Shown: positions 54,716 to 59,954 of the stretch, piece by piece | Position numbering within the stretch: position 1 is the first letter of the stretch | Layout of the letters: each line of letters begins with the position of its first letter | NCBI GenBank assembly: GCA_021773835.1 | Contig: JAJFJQ010000061.1 | Coordinates: 1-64,000, forward strand | Length of the DNA: 64,000 nt | DNA from: Gammaproteobacteria bacterium | GTDB taxonomy: Bacteria; Pseudomonadota; Gammaproteobacteria; Ga0077536 | Reading direction: 5' to 3' | Position numbers and translations under genes: made by a program | Notes under the pieces: generated by a model | What the model saw: the letters and a program-made list of their open reading frames with translations, nothing else | Told to the model about the DNA's origin: nothing | The model's database searches: none

Positions 54716-55789
54716 TTAAAGTTCGCCCGCAACAACGGCAAGCATGAATTTCTTTTGGCATTCCAACAATCGCTTATGATCCAGCCGTACGTCTGACATT
54801 TTTCCTACGCGATTTTCTACTCCACTCGACAAGCGCTTGCGATAAGCATGAAATTTGTAACCTGATCTCGTACTTTCAGTAGAAAAACGAAATACCTGTT
54901 CGTTGAATACCCCAATAAACTCGCCCTTGGAATTTGTCGTCCAGTATCCGGGAAGAACAAGCGCTTCAAGTGCGCGCCGCAAGTCCAGCGCGGATTGGTA
55001 TCGTTGCGATGTATCCGGGGCGGTAGCCTTTCGAATAATTTTTCGGACGTTTGAGGGTACAAAACGAAGAAAATCCTGCATTCGTGGGATTTTCCCTCTT
55101 GCTTTGAGCTGTTCGAATTTGGTGACGCCTACGCTGTCTCGGAGATCACGGATGGTACCAATACCGTTTATCAATCTAAAAAGCGTTAGTCCGACTTGAT
55201 AAATGTCTGTTTGAACCGAGATGTTTCCGTCTGCGAATGTTTCGGGTGCACGGTGCAGAACATACGCGCTTGGGGCTTTCGCTGGTGCCAACCCCGGTGC
55301 TACGCATGATATCCCGTAATCCGTAAGGAGGCCTTCGTTTTGCGGTCCGATGAGAATATTCGAAGGCTTAATATCGTTGTGATATAGAGCCGACTCATGA
55401 AGATATTCGAGTCCTCTGAGGACATCTATCGTTATGCGAACTGCCTCAGATATAGGCATGAAATTGCTGGAATTCAGATTCGCTGCCGCCGACCCTTGCG
55501 GGTGAAAATCCATCGCGATAACCACGACGTTCGTGGATTCGGTTTGTACTACGTCAGCGTAATGTACATGGACTACGTTCGCATGCTCTAGCCGGTTACC
55601 AACCTTCGCTTCATTGAGGATTTCGGCGACCGGTGCCATATTTTCATCCAAGATTTTTACAGCAACATTTTTCGCAAGCGTCAAATCCTGAGCAAGCCAC
55701 ACTTGTCCAGAATGTCCCCCCCCTATTTGCTGGTTAAGCTGATACTTGTACAGATGATCTCCTGCGTTGAACGAAATCAAAGCCATCAA
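54716..55789 (-). CDS. Serine/threonine protein kinase
   Basis: This 357-residue soluble protein has a protein-kinase domain over about residues 12-275: glycine loop IGGGHSGQVWLAQD, lysine in AVKILDENM, catalytic loop YHNDIKPSNILI, metal motif LTDYGIS and RAPETFADG. HRD reads HND and DFG reads DYG, but all the key polar residues (D, K, N, D) are kept. No membrane helix or PASTA domain is present. The C-terminal about 80 residues are basic and unlike known families. It overlaps the upstream gene by 4 bases (ATGA), so the two are made together. Confidence 0.88.
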   Translation of the reverse strand: MMALISFNAGDHLYKYQLNQQIGGGHSGQVWLAQDLTLAKNVAVKILDENMAPVAEILNEAKVGNRLEHANVVHVHYADVVQTESTNVVVIAMDFHPQGSAAANLNSSNFMPISEAVRITIDVLRGLEYLHESALYHNDIKPSNILIGPQNEGLLTDYGISCVAPGLAPAKAPSAYVLHRAPETFADGNISVQTDIYQVGLTLFRLINGIGTIRDLRDSVGVTKFEQLKARGKIPRMQDFLRFVPSNVRKIIRKATAPDTSQRYQSALDLRRALEALVLPGYWTTNSKGEFIGVFNEQVFRFSTESTRSGYKFHAYRKRLSSGVENRVGKMSDVRLDHKRLLECQKKFMLAVVAGEL

Positions 55790-56247
55790 ATTGATTTACC
55801 GAGTTTCCAGGCGACAATAATTGCGTCGGCAATTTGCTCGTTCCAGTACTTTTGGGTTCGTCCCACACGCTGCTCGGCTCGCTCCTTAACGGTTGCCCGA
55901 GTAGCCCCAAGTTGGCTGTACAATTTTGAGTGGACGGCCTTATTCACCTCTTTTGCAGCAAGCATTACTGCAGCATCCAAGTACGTTGCAAGTCGCGTCG
56001 ATTTCGTTTCGGTTCTTGAAAATTCGCTAGTCTTCAAGCCCACGCATGCAACGTCGGCATTTTGTCTAAGGATCCGGTCCACTTCCGCCTTTTGCCAATA
56101 CAGAACATCTTCTGGTTTCGCGATCCCTGCAGGTACCTTAACCAAGCTCTCGGTCTCATCGTTTAGCAACGCAACGTCATTGTTCGAAAACTCCACTAGC
56201 GCGAATCTCAGTTGACCAGGAGCAGTTCGTATTCCAAGGATTTTCAT
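55786..56247 (-). CDS. RNase-H/RuvC-fold protein, DUF3010-like
   Basis: This 153-residue protein has an N-terminal strand MKILGIRTAPGQLRFALVE, which resembles the first strand of RuvC-like nucleases, and a C-terminal IADAIIVAWKLG helix with Asp. The first acidic residue of RuvC (G-I-D) is R here, so it may be an inactive sensor. Middle part: ACVGLKTSEFSRTETKS. It is coupled to the kinase gene. Assigned to DUF3010 by overall resemblance only. Confidence 0.55.
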   Translation of the reverse strand: MKILGIRTAPGQLRFALVEFSNNDVALLNDETESLVKVPAGIAKPEDVLYWQKAEVDRILRQNADVACVGLKTSEFSRTETKSTRLATYLDAAVMLAAKEVNKAVHSKLYSQLGATRATVKERAEQRVGRTQKYWNEQIADAIIVAWKLGKSI

Positions 56248-56715: not shown

Positions 56716-57594
56716 TCATCTTTTAAATCGCGGCGTCAAGGATTCTTCAAGGTCTGCTTCTTCTTGCAGCTCTTCTGCATCGGGCAAATGGTCTACGGTC
56801 AAGACGGTGAGCGTTTTGCCATAATCCCCAAGTCCCATCGCTTCCTCATAAACGTCACCCTCCAGCGTATCGCCGAACCAGTTCTGCATGACCGATTCCT
56901 TTCCGACGCGCTCATTACTCTTTACCTTGGACGCATAGCCGTTGAGTTTTAGGGTTGCACTGTCCGGTGGCAACAGCGCGCCCTTCGAGATCCATTCAAT
57001 CGCATCATGTTCGCGTAGCGCATCGGACATGAAGCAATAATCAACTCGATCTCCCTGGCTAACGACTATAGCTATCGCGTTGGCAGTCCGCTGGGTTAAC
57101 CGGATTGCCGTCGCGGTCATTGATGTTTCGCACTGCTCCGAGAGTGCAGCGACCGCATCAAGCCCGTCACCTGTGCCACCAAGCGCTTTATCGAAAAGGT
57201 CGGAGGGCATTAAGAGATTTGCTGAAAAATGATCAGCTTCGAACTCGTATAGATCTTTCGTCCCGAAACCACCCGCATAGGACGCGTGCACGCCGTCCAC
57301 CAAGACTGCTTCCGGATGTCCTGGAAGTCGAAAGTGGCCGATCTCGTGACCAATACTGAAATTCTGAAAACCTACACTATCGATCGACGTGGAATAGAGG
57401 ATGCCGAATATGTTATTGCTTCGTAATAGCATGCCCGAGACGCCGGGCTGCGCTTGTTGCGGCAAAGGCTTGGTTTCTATATCGAGCTCTTTCGCGATTT
57501 GTAGCGGCATCACGGGTAATGCGTTGATACCTAGCTCCGTCAGAAGCACGTTCGCCTCGCGAGCCGCAATTTCCTGCCGAACCGTCCTGCTCAT
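56716..57594 (-). CDS. ImmA/IrrE-type metalloprotease
   Basis: This 292-residue protein has the zinc motif in SIGHEIGHFRLPGHPEA, followed by EFEADHFSANLLMPSDLF, the third ligand region of ImmA/IrrE proteases. In other elements these proteases cleave their paired XRE repressor to switch on genes after damage or phage signals. It starts at the last base of the XRE stop codon (TAATG). Confidence 0.9.
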   Translation of the reverse strand: MSRTVRQEIAAREANVLLTELGINALPVMPLQIAKELDIETKPLPQQAQPGVSGMLLRSNNIFGILYSTSIDSVGFQNFSIGHEIGHFRLPGHPEAVLVDGVHASYAGGFGTKDLYEFEADHFSANLLMPSDLFDKALGGTGDGLDAVAALSEQCETSMTATAIRLTQRTANAIAIVVSQGDRVDYCFMSDALREHDAIEWISKGALLPPDSATLKLNGYASKVKSNERVGKESVMQNWFGDTLEGDVYEEAMGLGDYGKTLTVLTVDHLPDAEELQEEADLEESLTPRFKR

Positions 57595-57935
57595 TAGGAA
57601 TCTTGCTCTCGCGTAGCGCGCCGGGCCAGATAGGCCATCATCTCCCGGGCCGTTTCTCGGTCTCGATCGCTGAGCTTTTCGTAGTCGCGATAAAGCTGAT
57701 CGCCAGCGGTGAGTGTCACAACATGGGAGTCAGCACGACCCATCAAATAATCGACTGTCGTTTCTAAGGCATCGGCAAGGCTGCGAAGGTTGTCGAAGGA
57801 TGGTTTACGCCCACCTGTCTCGAAATGCGAAATTGCAGTGGGTTGTAGCTTCGCTTTATTGGCTAATCCCTCCTGACTCAGATCAAGCGCTTTGCGCCGT
57901 TCATACAGTCGTTTTGAAAAAATGTTCTCTGGCAC
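57594..57935 (-). CDS. XRE-family repressor paired with ImmA
   Basis: This 113-residue protein has a helix-turn-helix over residues 8-62 (RLYERRKALDLSQEGLANKA, LQPTAISHFETGGRKPSFDN) and a charged C-terminal tail. It is divergent from the ubiquitin-like operon, so it likely represses its own gene and possibly that operon. The start is ATG 57935. Confidence 0.9.
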   Translation of the reverse strand: MPENIFSKRLYERRKALDLSQEGLANKAKLQPTAISHFETGGRKPSFDNLRSLADALETTVDYLMGRADSHVVTLTAGDQLYRDYEKLSDRDRETAREMMAYLARRATREQDS

Positions 57936-57948
57936 GGTTGACTCCTAG

Positions 57949-58036
57949 TTGACGAACTCGTATATTTATTATTGACGGATATAGGTAGTTCACTAGGCGT
58001 CTTTATTTTTGCATTGCGCCTAGACGTTTACGTCAA
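57949..58036. promoter_or_regulatory. Candidate operator region between XRE/immA and the Ubl operon
   Basis: TTGACG occurs at 57949-57954 and 57972-57977, and inverted (CGTCAA) at 58031-58036. A dyad CTAGGCG-N17-CGCCTAG spans 57993-58023, and GACGT-TT-ACGTC spans 58023-58034. These are the kind of repeats a XRE repressor could use to control both divergent transcripts. No binding data. Confidence 0.45.
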
Positions 58037-58082
58037 TATTAGCATGACGACAATATTTTTAAAAAGGAAATTGGTGACGACT

Positions 58083-58388
58083 ATGGGAAACGAAATTAGA
58101 TCTGCAGAACGGGACGGCGCGTGCCATGAAGACCGCCCGAATCAAGAGAAAACGGTGACGATCATCGTCAACGGGCGTGAAGAGCAAGTACCCAAGAACG
58201 ACCCGTTGAACTTTAATGAACTGATAAGGATTGCTTACAACAATCCACCCTCTGGTGAATTTATCTGCTGGACTATCACGTACCGCAAAGGCCACGGGAA
58301 TAAGCCAGAAGGTACACAAATCGAGGGTGAAACGGTTAAGCCCAAAGAAGGTATGATCTTTAATGTCACCTACACTGATAAATCATAG
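58083..58388 (+). CDS. Ubiquitin-like modifier (multiubiquitin-domain family)
   Basis: This 101-residue protein (from ATG 58083; GTG 58074 and ATG 58044 are alternatives, the frame opening at 57972) has a beta-grasp domain with KTVTIIVNGREEQVPKNDPL, FNELIRIAYNNPPSGE and EGMIFNVTYTDKS. This is the signature of the prokaryotic multiubiquitin family, but with only one repeat. It ends in T-D-K-S and has no terminal glycine pair. Its stop lies inside the start of the E1-like gene, so the two are coupled. It is probably the protein that is attached to targets or acts as a scaffold. Confidence 0.85.
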   Translation: MGNEIRSAERDGACHEDRPNQEKTVTIIVNGREEQVPKNDPLNFNELIRIAYNNPPSGEFICWTITYRKGHGNKPEGTQIEGETVKPKEGMIFNVTYTDKS

Positions 58389-59538
58389 TGCCGATCTCAA
58401 ATACCTCCAGGACGATGGCTACGAACTTGAAATCCTTGGAGGCTATCTGGTCCTTCACAACATCCCGTACGTCGACTCAGTACGCAAGATTCGGCGCGGC
58501 AAGCTGATCTCGACTCTCGATCTTTCCGGTGACCGGACAACGAAGCCAACAACGCATATCGCCCTCTTCGCTGGTGAGCACCCTTGCGATAAAAATGGCA
58601 ACAAGCTCCGACACCTGGAACACGCCACAAATGAGAACACGATTGCCGACGGGGTGACGGTAAATCGTTCGTTTTCCTGTAAACCTCCCGGTGGTTATAA
58701 GGACTACCACGATAAAATGACGACCTATGTCGCGATGATTTCCAATCACGCCGAGCAGATCGATCGAGGCGTGACGGCTCGAACGTTTCAGGTGATCGAG
58801 AGCGACGACGATGATTCGCCCTTTTACTATATCGATAATGCGACAAGCCGAGCCGGGATTAACGTTCACGCGCAGAAGCTTGCCCTCACGAAAGTCGCGA
58901 TCCTCGGGCTCGGCGGTACTGGCTCGTATGTTCTTGATCATGTTAGTAAGACATTGGTGCGTGAGATTCACGTTTTCGACGGCGATCGATTTGGCCAGCA
59001 TAATGCGTTTCGGTCCCCCTGCCCGCCGACGATCGAACAGCTTCGCGAGCGCCCGTATAAGGTTGAGTACTTTCGGGACCGCTACTCGGTAATGCATCGC
59101 GGCATCTTCACCCACCCGATTTATCTTGATGAAACAAACGCTCAAGAGCTCAGCGGCTTTGATTTCGCTTTTCTATGTATGGATGACAGACCCGGAAAGG
59201 AGACTGTCATTCGTAAGCTAGAAGAATTTATCGTTCCGTTTATCGATACGGGCATGGGTATCGAAGATTGCACCGACGGGCTGCGAGGTGTCCTGCGCGT
59301 GACGACCAGTACGCCGGATCATCGCGATCACGTCTGGAAGAAACATCGCATTCCGGTCACAGACAGCGGCGTCAAGAACATCTACGCCTCGAACATCCAG
59401 ATTTCCGAACTTAACTCACTTAATGCCAGTTTTGCCGTCATTCGGTGGAAGAAATACCTTGGCTTTTTTGCTGATCTCGAAGACGAGCATTTCACTACTT
59501 ACACGCTCGACGGAAACGCCGTGACGAACGAAGATTAG
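58363..59538 (+). CDS. E1-like ThiF-family enzyme with N-terminal DUF6791-like domain
   Basis: This 391-residue protein has an N-terminal about 165-residue domain with DGYELEILGGYLVLHNIPYV, LFAGEHPCDKNGNKL and KDYHDKMTTYVAMISNHAEQ. An adenylating (ThiF/E1) Rossmann domain follows, with ILGLGGTGSYVLDHVSKT and the DGDRFGQHNAFRSP motif. Residues FLCMDDRPGK and ASNIQISELNSLNASFAVI complete it. It would adenylate the Ubl C-terminus. The cysteine in E-H-P-C of the first domain could be a transfer site like that of an E2 enzyme; this is inference. ATG 58363 overlaps the Ubl gene. Confidence 0.88.
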   Translation: MSPTLINHSADLKYLQDDGYELEILGGYLVLHNIPYVDSVRKIRRGKLISTLDLSGDRTTKPTTHIALFAGEHPCDKNGNKLRHLEHATNENTIADGVTVNRSFSCKPPGGYKDYHDKMTTYVAMISNHAEQIDRGVTARTFQVIESDDDDSPFYYIDNATSRAGINVHAQKLALTKVAILGLGGTGSYVLDHVSKTLVREIHVFDGDRFGQHNAFRSPCPPTIEQLRERPYKVEYFRDRYSVMHRGIFTHPIYLDETNAQELSGFDFAFLCMDDRPGKETVIRKLEEFIVPFIDTGMGIEDCTDGLRGVLRVTTSTPDHRDHVWKKHRIPVTDSGVKNIYASNIQISELNSLNASFAVIRWKKYLGFFADLEDEHFTTYTLDGNAVTNED

Positions 59539-59540
59539 AA

Positions 59541-59954
59541 ATGAAAAGAACCGCGGGTATGCGATACAGACTCGTTCATACGATCCCGCGCGGGATTGAC
59601 GAGGGCGTCCTTTATGTCTCGCGGGAATACGCTACCGCCGTTCACAAATGCTGCTGCGGTTGCGGGCACGAAGTCGTGACACCGTTGGGTCCATCCGACT
59701 GGACGATCAGGATCGACCGCGGCGCCGTCTCTGTTTATCCGTCGGTCGGCAACTGGAGTCTTGCGTGTCGGTCACATTACTGGATTACGCGCGGACGTAT
59801 TCGATGGGCCGAACGATGGTCGGATGCGGAAATTCGCCATGCGCGGGAACGTGACCGTATGGCTAAGCAGCGAATGTACCGTGAGGCTGACCGACAACAA
59901 CAATCGACGCGCGGCTTCTGGTCATCGCTGTGGCGTTGGCTTACCCGCAAGTGA
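59541..59954 (+). CDS. DUF6527 protein of the Ubl operon
   Basis: This 137-residue protein has a cysteine-rich motif KCCCGCGHEVVTPLG, then SVYPSVGNWSLACRSHYWIT and GRIRWAERW, which define DUF6527. Four cysteines and a His could form a zinc site. The C-terminal tail (FWSSLWRWLTRK) is amphipathic. It begins 2 bases after the E1-like gene. Its role is unknown; it could be a ligase or target-recognition factor. Confidence 0.85.
   Translation: MKRTAGMRYRLVHTIPRGIDEGVLYVSREYATAVHKCCCGCGHEVVTPLGPSDWTIRIDRGAVSVYPSVGNWSLACRSHYWITRGRIRWAERWSDAEIRHARERDRMAKQRMYREADRQQQSTRGFWSSLWRWLTRK

What the first reader, a model, noticed from the sequence alone, without database searches (positions are those of the whole stretch)
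57972..59954. Three-gene ubiquitin-like system in an ICE: single Ubl, fused two-domain E1, DUF6527
A multiubiquitin-family modifier, a ThiF/E1-like enzyme with an N-terminal DUF6791-like domain and a zinc-ligand-rich DUF6527 protein are coupled in one operon (26-base overlap, then 2-base gap). Comparative genomic surveys of prokaryotic ubiquitin-like systems have noted related gene sets, but to my knowledge their biochemistry is poorly known. Odd points: only one Ubl repeat, no visible terminal glycines (ends T-D-K-S), and no separate E2 or JAB deconjugase gene within the operon; RadC, a JAB protein, lies 1 kb away. The E-H-P-C cysteine of the first E1-gene domain is a candidate transfer cysteine.
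Basis: partly seen in the sequence, partly recalled or inferred. Interest (0 to 1): 0.85.

Follow-up and report, generated by a model that had tools for sequence, protein, structure and literature searches.

The report
Damage-controlled bacterial ubiquitin-like operon on ICE
A mobile element carries a three-gene bacterial protein-tagging system (a ubiquitin-like tag, its activating enzyme and a zinc protein) next to a known type of DNA-damage switch; this kind of operon was first described in 2006, but its tag ends in an invariant serine rather than glycine and its enzyme has no invariant cysteine, so its chemistry is still an open question.

Summary
The three genes are real and form a conserved unit: Multi_ubiq Ubl, DUF6791-ThiF E1, DUF6527. 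It is not a new kind of system. Iyer et al. 2006 (row 6e) already listed operons whose E1 has a 'domain X' instead of JAB plus a zinc-type protein, and the nearest solved relative of the E1 is Citrobacter BubCD.

The 'odd' features turn out to be family rules. The 26-nt Ubl/E1 overlap is conserved in almost every homologue, from Proteobacteria to Bacteroidota, Cyanobacteria, Actinobacteria and Bacillota. All 36 complete Ubl ends read T/S-x-[K/R/Q/E]-S-stop, and codon analysis shows that selection acts on the Ubl's terminal serine. RadC is an ICE passenger (1 of 33 loci), and no homologous operon has a JAB. The E-H-P-C cysteine is replaced by His or Arg in 4 of 26 homologues; the protein has no invariant cysteine.

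Best model: damage-induced, cysteine-independent Ubl conjugation starting from an unprocessed C-terminal serine. The genome carries two more multi-Ubl operons, both with JAB. Whether DUF6791 is an E2-like domain is unresolved.

The parts
56716..57594 (-). CapP-like M78/IrrE metallopeptidase (HEIGH motif), divergent regulator
   Evidence: PADLOC capP E 1.1e-52; Pfam Peptidase_M78; HExxH present
57594..57935 (-). CapH-like HTH repressor, divergent regulator
   Evidence: PADLOC capH E 8.3e-24; Pfam HTH_3
57938..57966 (+). promoter-like site TTGACT-17-TATATT for the Ubl operon
   Evidence: consensus scan only, number of sites not above shuffles
57940..58001 (.). imperfect 19-nt inverted repeat around the promoter, possible CapH operator
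   Evidence: the repeat finder I1, 74% complementary; inference only
58083..58388 (+). Ubl, single Multi_ubiq beta-grasp repeat, 101 aa, C-terminus F-N-V-T-Y-T-D-K-S
   Evidence: PF14452 35 bits; phmmer to 9cd2 'multi-ubiquitin domain protein' E 3.2e-10, same TDKS end
58363..58388 (+). 26-nt dual-coding overlap: Ubl tail / E1 start
   Evidence: exactly 26 nt in nearly all homologous operons
58363..59538 (+). DUF6791-ThiF fusion, E1-like adenylating enzyme, 391 aa
   Evidence: PF20590 + PF00899; NF004805 full length; profile match to BubCD E 8e-12
58390..58836 (+). DUF6791 domain (invariant H65, G71, P74, G79, S105, K107, K118, Y122; C75 not invariant)
   Evidence: coordinates; conservation counts; AlphaFold2 order alpha-4beta-alpha
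58870..59256 (+). ThiF/E1 adenylation domain as matched by Pfam
   Evidence: PF00899 residues 170-298; fold match to BubCD Z 22.0, 217 aligned, 3.2 A
59541..59954 (+). DUF6527 protein, zinc-ligand pattern C-x3-C-x34-C-x2-H, third gene of the operon
   Evidence: PF20137 88 bits; conserved ligands; adjacent in homologues

Best explanation
This is a DNA-damage-inducible ubiquitin-like conjugation operon of the known 6e class (the version with domain X = DUF6791 instead of JAB), a divergent sister of the Bub pathway. Proposed working: (1) CapH represses the divergent promoter; damage or phage replication produces ssDNA, CapP is activated and cleaves CapH, and the operon turns on. (2) The E1 domain adenylates the native, unprocessed C-terminus of the Ubl, a fixed-length tail ending T-x-[K/R/Q/E]-S, so no JAB maturation step is needed. 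(3) Transfer to a target amine proceeds without a conserved cysteine thioester, probably with DUF6791 acting as an E2-like domain (invariant S105/K107/K118/Y122/H65). (4) The zinc protein DUF6527, shared with the JAB-type operons, selects or binds targets. Shown here: gene content, conservation, E1 signature, tail motif, overlap, and presence of CapH/CapP. Inferred from homology: step 1 and adenylation in step 2. Hypothesis: steps 3 and 4. Anti-phage or stress defence is the likely purpose, by neighbourhood only.
For: E1: adenylation residues GxGGTG, D206, R217 and K233 are invariant in 26 homologues, D274 in 25 of 26, matching the MoeB Gly41/Arg73/Lys86/Asp130 set (PMC12355090). Profile match to Citrobacter BubCD E 8e-12; VIA-align Z 22.0 over 217 residues; hhalign of the E1 domain against JAB-type operons E 5e-21. 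Ubl: terminal Ser in 36 of 36 loci whose Ubl end was read, with T and C of the TCN codon invariant and all four third bases used (A10 G16 T5 C3), although that base changes the E1 residue; so selection acts on the Ubl serine. JAB-type Ubls instead carry Gly at F+10, some with extensions or a fused E2 behind it, whereas DUF6791-type tails end at F+8. No JAB was found beside the homologous operons other than RadC in the window. No invariant Cys in the fusion protein. CapH/CapP in the window; CapP-like hits beside 8 further homologous operons and WYL regulators beside 4. CapH+CapP and CapW are described as damage-responsive controllers next to Bub and CBASS operons (PMC13373217). Operon class described in PMC1779556.
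Against: No conjugate, adenylate or phenotype has been shown for a DUF6791-type operon in anything I could read. The mechanism papers on Bub (Ye et al. 2026, Gong et al. 2025) were not available, so what they say about this subtype is unknown to me. The E2-like reading of DUF6791 failed every sequence test for significance, and (Z 2.4) the reversed control scored almost as high. C75 is kept in 22 of 26 homologues, so a cysteine route in most members is not excluded. Some CapP hits are weak (L002, L033). The sample of loci is uneven.
Confidence: 0.55

Rival explanations
1. Cysteine-dependent E2-E1 fusion: C75 (E-H-P-C) is the E2-type transfer cysteine, as the first reader proposed and as in Cap2-type E2-E1 fusions.
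For: C75 is conserved in 22 of 26 homologues; it is the only widely conserved cysteine of the DUF6791 domain.
Against: Replaced by His in 3 and Arg in 1 otherwise intact operons that keep the Ubl, DUF6527 and (in 3 of the 4) the 26-nt overlap; neighbours H65, P74, G79 and S105 are more conserved than C75.
Confidence: 0.15
2. Missing functions are supplied in trans: the JAB and BubB-type E2 of the other multi-Ubl operons of the same genome (contigs C69 and C45) serve this Ubl too.
For: The genome has two further multi-Ubl operons, one with Prok-E2_E, JAB-ThiF and DUF6527, the other with a triple Ubl, a JAMM-motif protein and a separate ThiF.
Against: The tails differ (T-x-K-S versus E-G at another length), so cross-processing is unlikely; the DUF6791 operon travels on many unrelated plasmids without such partners beside it.
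Confidence: 0.1
3. DUF6791 is a peptidase that trims the T-x-K-S tail or removes the Ubl, a functional stand-in for JAB (the speculation of Iyer et al. 2006 about domain X).
For: It occupies the position of JAB in the fusion; it has invariant charged and polar residues.
Against: The conserved tail has fixed length and no glycine before it, so nothing marks a cleavage site; no metal-ligand or catalytic-triad pattern was recognised; no profile similarity to JAB.
Confidence: 0.15
4. Not conjugation: the E1 only makes a Ubl-adenylate or a modified Ubl, as in MccB (which adenylates a peptide ending in Asn) or in sulfur carrier systems.
For: MccB and ThiF are among the sequence and fold matches; a non-glycine C-terminus is acceptable to MccB (general knowledge).
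Against: Closest relative is BubCD, with better scores than MccB; no sulfur-transfer or peptide-export genes recognised next to the operons.
Confidence: 0.08

Closest known systems
Row 6e operons with domain X (Iyer et al. 2006, PMC1779556)
   Same: Ubl with one to three repeats, E1 with domain X in place of JAB, zinc-type protein Y; all three present here.
   Different: Described from sequence only. Not mentioned in the sections I read: the exact 26-nt overlap, the invariant terminal Ser and CapH/CapP. Here there is a single Ubl, on an ICE.
Bub (bacterial ubiquitination-like) pathway, BubA-BubB-BubCD, PDB 9ea4/9eae/9eav
   Same: Homologous E1 domain; Multi_ubiq Ubl; the JAB-type operons also carry DUF6527; the same class of damage-responsive regulators.
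   Different: Bub E1 is fused to JAB and works with BubB (Prok-E2_E); Ubl tails carry Gly. Here DUF6791 replaces JAB, there is no BubB gene, and the tail ends in Ser.
PDB 9cd2, ZDHYS365 multi-ubiquitin domain protein
   Same: Closest solved Ubl, E 3.2e-10; ends with the same T-D-K-S.
   Different: 222 aa, so more than one Ubl repeat; here one.
CapH+CapP controllers of immune operons
   Same: HTH + M78 protease with HExxH, divergent from the operon; PADLOC capH and capP.
   Different: Described next to Bub, CBASS and other operons (PMC13373217); here next to a DUF6791-type operon. ssDNA response untested.
Cap2 (type II CBASS) E2-E1 fusion
   Same: Single polypeptide with an N-terminal domain in front of an E1 adenylation domain.
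   Different: Cap2 acts on a CD-NTase and uses cysteines (general knowledge); here a beta-grasp Ubl and no invariant cysteine.

Membership tests
Iyer 2006 row 6e operon, domain X subtype | Protein with one to three Ubl repeats | tested here: met
   PF14452 one repeat, over cut-off
Iyer 2006 row 6e operon, domain X subtype | E1-like enzyme with an uncharacterised N-terminal domain in place of JAB | tested here: met
   DUF6791 188 bits + ThiF; no JAB similarity of the domain. That domain X equals DUF6791 is inferred from its position and description, since the paper's alignment was not available
Iyer 2006 row 6e operon, domain X subtype | Metal-binding protein Y (C-x3-C-x35-38-H-x2-C in the paper) | tested here: met
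   DUF6527 with C37-x3-C41-x34-C76-x2-H79; nearly the same spacing, His and Cys order reversed with respect to the paper's text; the paper names sll6052 of Synechocystis, and DUF6527 lies in such a Synechocystis pSYSX operon
Bub pathway (BubA, BubB, BubCD) | Homologous E1 adenylation domain | tested here: met
   E 8e-12 to BubCD, hhalign E 5e-21 to JAB-type E1s
Bub pathway (BubA, BubB, BubCD) | JAB domain fused to or next to the E1 | tested here: not met
   Absent in the operon; RadC is 1 kb away but in 1 of 33 homologous loci only
Bub pathway (BubA, BubB, BubCD) | BubB-type E2-like protein (Prok-E2_E) | tested here: not met
   No such gene in the operon by Pfam; DUF6791 not significantly similar to it; one copy elsewhere in the genome
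Bub pathway (BubA, BubB, BubCD) | Covalent Ubl-protein conjugates | not testable with these tools
   Needs biochemistry
E2/UBC fold (for DUF6791) | Fold alpha-4beta-alpha with active-site loop before the last helix | tested here: inconclusive
   AlphaFold2 element order compatible, but the fold search was filled by the E1 domain and profile tests were not significant
CapH+CapP controller | HTH gene plus M78 protease gene with HExxH next to the operon promoter | tested here: met
   PADLOC capH 8.3e-24, capP 1.1e-52; HEIGH; 147 bases between capH and the Ubl ATG
CapH+CapP controller | ssDNA-activated cleavage of CapH and induction by DNA damage | not testable with these tools
   Needs reporter and cleavage assays
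ThiS/MoaD sulfur carrier system | Ubl ending in Gly-Gly | tested here: not met
   Ends in Ser in all homologues read
Type II CBASS (Cap2) | CD-NTase gene in the operon | tested here: not met
   None among the three genes or the neighbouring genes scanned

The most novel reading that the evidence does not exclude
A ubiquitin-like modifier is activated and conjugated through a C-terminal serine instead of glycine, by a cysteine-free enzyme in which DUF6791 is an E2-like domain (invariant Ser105 at or near the transfer site) fused to the E1: a thioester-independent, maturation-free and possibly irreversible ubiquitination-like reaction that fires after DNA damage.
Probability: 0.3. Interest if true: 0.75.

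Novelty: new member of a known kind. Interest (0 to 1): 0.45.

Why it matters
The operon type has been known since 2006 and is widespread on plasmids, but DUF6791 and DUF6527 are still 'unknown function' in Pfam, and no paper in the library names either. The comparison makes the open question directly testable: the Ubl tail ends in an invariant serine at a fixed length, the enzyme has no invariant cysteine, and no protease is present in the operon. If conjugation is confirmed, this would extend ubiquitin-type chemistry beyond the glycine/cysteine rules, with a DNA-damage switch attached.

Tried and rejected
RadC as deconjugase: present in 1 of 33 homologous loci, part of the ICE backbone. E-H-P-C as an essential transfer cysteine: not invariant. 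Ubl start at TTG 57972: rejected for ATG 58083. Programmed frameshift into a Ubl-E1 fusion: disfavoured, because the E1 start codon itself is conserved (ATG in 31 and GTG in 2 of the 34 distinct segments) and the Ubl residue at that place follows the start codon used. DUF6791 as JAB-like: no profile similarity. DUF6791 as BubB-like E2: hhalign E 0.14-0.19; own semi-global profile alignment Z 2.4, but the reversed control scored 13.98 against 14.37, so left open. Pfam scan of 28 DUF6791 domains at E up to 10: nothing but DUF6791 and stray hits. DUF6527 fold: model of middling confidence (pLDDT 73.5); no Foldseek match below E 1 and no VIA match above Z 5.2, the best ones to the C-terminal helix only; weak zinc-ribbon rows (Kti11, Trm112, Z 2.2) taken as chance. 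Phage records: no match. Viral contigs gave three relatives. Equivalence of Y341 with BubCD Y370 could not be fixed by alignment. Papers on Bub mechanism and Ubl structure were not held.

Full report
WHAT IS THERE. Three + strand genes: Ubl 58083-58388 (PF14452), DUF6791-ThiF 58363-59538 (PF20590 + PF00899; NCBIfam NF004805 over the whole length) and DUF6527 59541-59954 (PF20137), all over curated cut-offs. The 26-base overlap and the 2-base gap are as reported. The element context is an ICE: TraC_F_IV, TraG_N, coupling ATPase, integrase, DUF3577 and ParM-like.

HOMOLOGUES. The E1 has relatives in 115 plasmid records at under 60% identity, from Acinetobacter and Rhizobium to Bacteroidota, Cyanobacteria, Actinobacteria and Bacillota, in 8 of 398 genomes drawn from the window's phylum, and in no phage record. 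Each annotated plasmid locus has Ubl - E1 - DUF6527 in this order. The DUF6527 zinc motif is found behind the E1 in 29 of 33 loci by a strict pattern, and the other four have an annotated DUF6527 or a small ORF at that place. RadC occurs in 1 of 33, the window.

THE OVERLAP AND THE TAIL. In nearly all loci the Ubl stop lies exactly 26 nt inside the E1 gene (L034 starts the E1 elsewhere, L037 is cut before the Ubl). All 36 Ubl ends read T/S-x-[K/R/Q/E]-S-stop, with V and F/I at fixed positions before. In 34 distinct segments T and C of the last codon are invariant and its third base is A10 G16 T5 C3, although that base is the second base of an E1 codon and changes the E1 residue (H/R/L/P). So the serine is kept for the Ubl's sake. 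The solved Ubl 9cd2 ends in the same T-D-K-S. The JAB-type sister operons show a different rule: Gly ten residues after the conserved F (or equivalent) in 9 of 10 Ubls read, at or near the end or followed by a fused E2 domain. Tail type and E1 N-terminal module therefore go together.

THE ENZYME. GxGGTG, D206, R217 and K233 are invariant in 26 homologues and D274 in 25; these correspond to the MoeB residues listed in PMC12355090. The nearest solved protein is Citrobacter BubCD by sequence profile (E 8e-12) and by fold (Foldseek E 7e-10; VIA-align Z 22.0, 217 aligned, 3.2 A). No column holds an invariant cysteine: C75 of E-H-P-C is Cys in 22, His in 3 and Arg in 1; C272 is Cys in 14. Invariant in DUF6791 are H65, G71, P74, G79, S105, K107, K118 and Y122. 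The AlphaFold2 model (pLDDT about 65-93 in the N-domain, mostly 80-90) has helix, four strands, a loop with short strands, then a long helix. This order is that of E2/RWD folds, and the motif order D-x3-L-x3-G, P-x(4-6)-G, [F/W]-S-x-[K/H], aromatic, helix resembles BubB (A5). But sequence tests are not significant, and a shuffle Z of 2.4 came with a reversed control nearly as high. I leave the E2-like reading as a hypothesis at about even odds.

THE SWITCH. The divergent pair 57594-57935 and 56716-57594 matches PADLOC capH (8.3e-24) and capP (1.1e-52), with HEIGH. CapP-like genes also lie beside L002, L003, L004, L005, L017, L027, L030 and L033 (the hits in L002 and L033 are weak, and L005's lies over 1 kb away), and WYL genes beside L016, L025, L031 and L032. 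Seven further loci have a UvrD helicase gene upstream; the one scanned carries an M78 domain fused to UvrD and PD-(D/E)XK domains. The library paper PMC13373217 reports that 219 of 544 Bub operons are associated with CapW or CapH+CapP, both damage-responsive. Induction here is inferred.

PRIOR KNOWLEDGE. Iyer et al. 2006 (PMC1779556, row 6e and text) describe this operon class, including a subset whose E1 has an unknown N-terminal domain in place of JAB and the zinc-type protein. Bub is the later experimental name for sister pathways; Prok-E2_E is BubB (E 4e-39). The Bub mechanism papers were not available, so I cannot say what they report on this subtype. Hence: new member of a known kind.

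SAME GENOME. Contig C69 carries Ubl, Prok-E2_E, JAB-ThiF and DUF6527; contig C45 carries a triple Ubl, a JAMM-motif protein and a separate ThiF. Three multi-Ubl operons in one genome is notable, and offers a rival in which functions are shared in trans.

VERDICT. A widespread, known but biochemically open operon type, with a clear and testable peculiarity: serine-ended tail, no invariant cysteine, no protease in the operon, DNA-damage switch.

Noticed in passing
G000 contigs C69 (L073 4694-7336) and C45 (L072 1532-3961): The same genome holds two more multi-ubiquitin operons: Ubl / Prok-E2_E / JAB-ThiF / DUF6527, and triple Ubl / JAMM-motif protein / ThiF.
   Followed up: partly
L018 791-4189; similar UvrD gene upstream in L019, L020, L021, L022, L023, L035: A larger cassette: response regulator, unknown protein and UvrD helicase upstream of Ubl-E1-DUF6527, in several loci with PD-(D/E)XK nuclease and UvrD downstream. 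In L018 the upstream helicase has a CapP-like M78 domain at its N-terminus and a PD-(D/E)XK domain at its C-terminus.
   Followed up: partly
L073 3545-4630: Upstream of the JAB-type operon of the same genome lies a fused HTH-M78 protein (PADLOC RmrA 5.4e-56), a one-gene version of the CapH/CapP pair.
   Followed up: no
window 54716-56247 (-): Ser/Thr kinase (PADLOC PD-T4-6, 4e-43) coupled to a small protein with weak similarity to DpdC (2.1e-4): a possible separate defence pair next to the operon.
   Followed up: no
L017 4497-4730 and L033 4535-4756: A small DUF2188 gene sits between the CapH/CapP pair and the Ubl in two Rhodobacterales plasmids.
   Followed up: no
L005, L006, L008, L015, L024, L026: Bacteroidota operons and a few others carry Ubls of about 218-235 aa (probably three repeats) with the same T-D-K-S end, so repeat number changes while the tail does not.
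   Followed up: no
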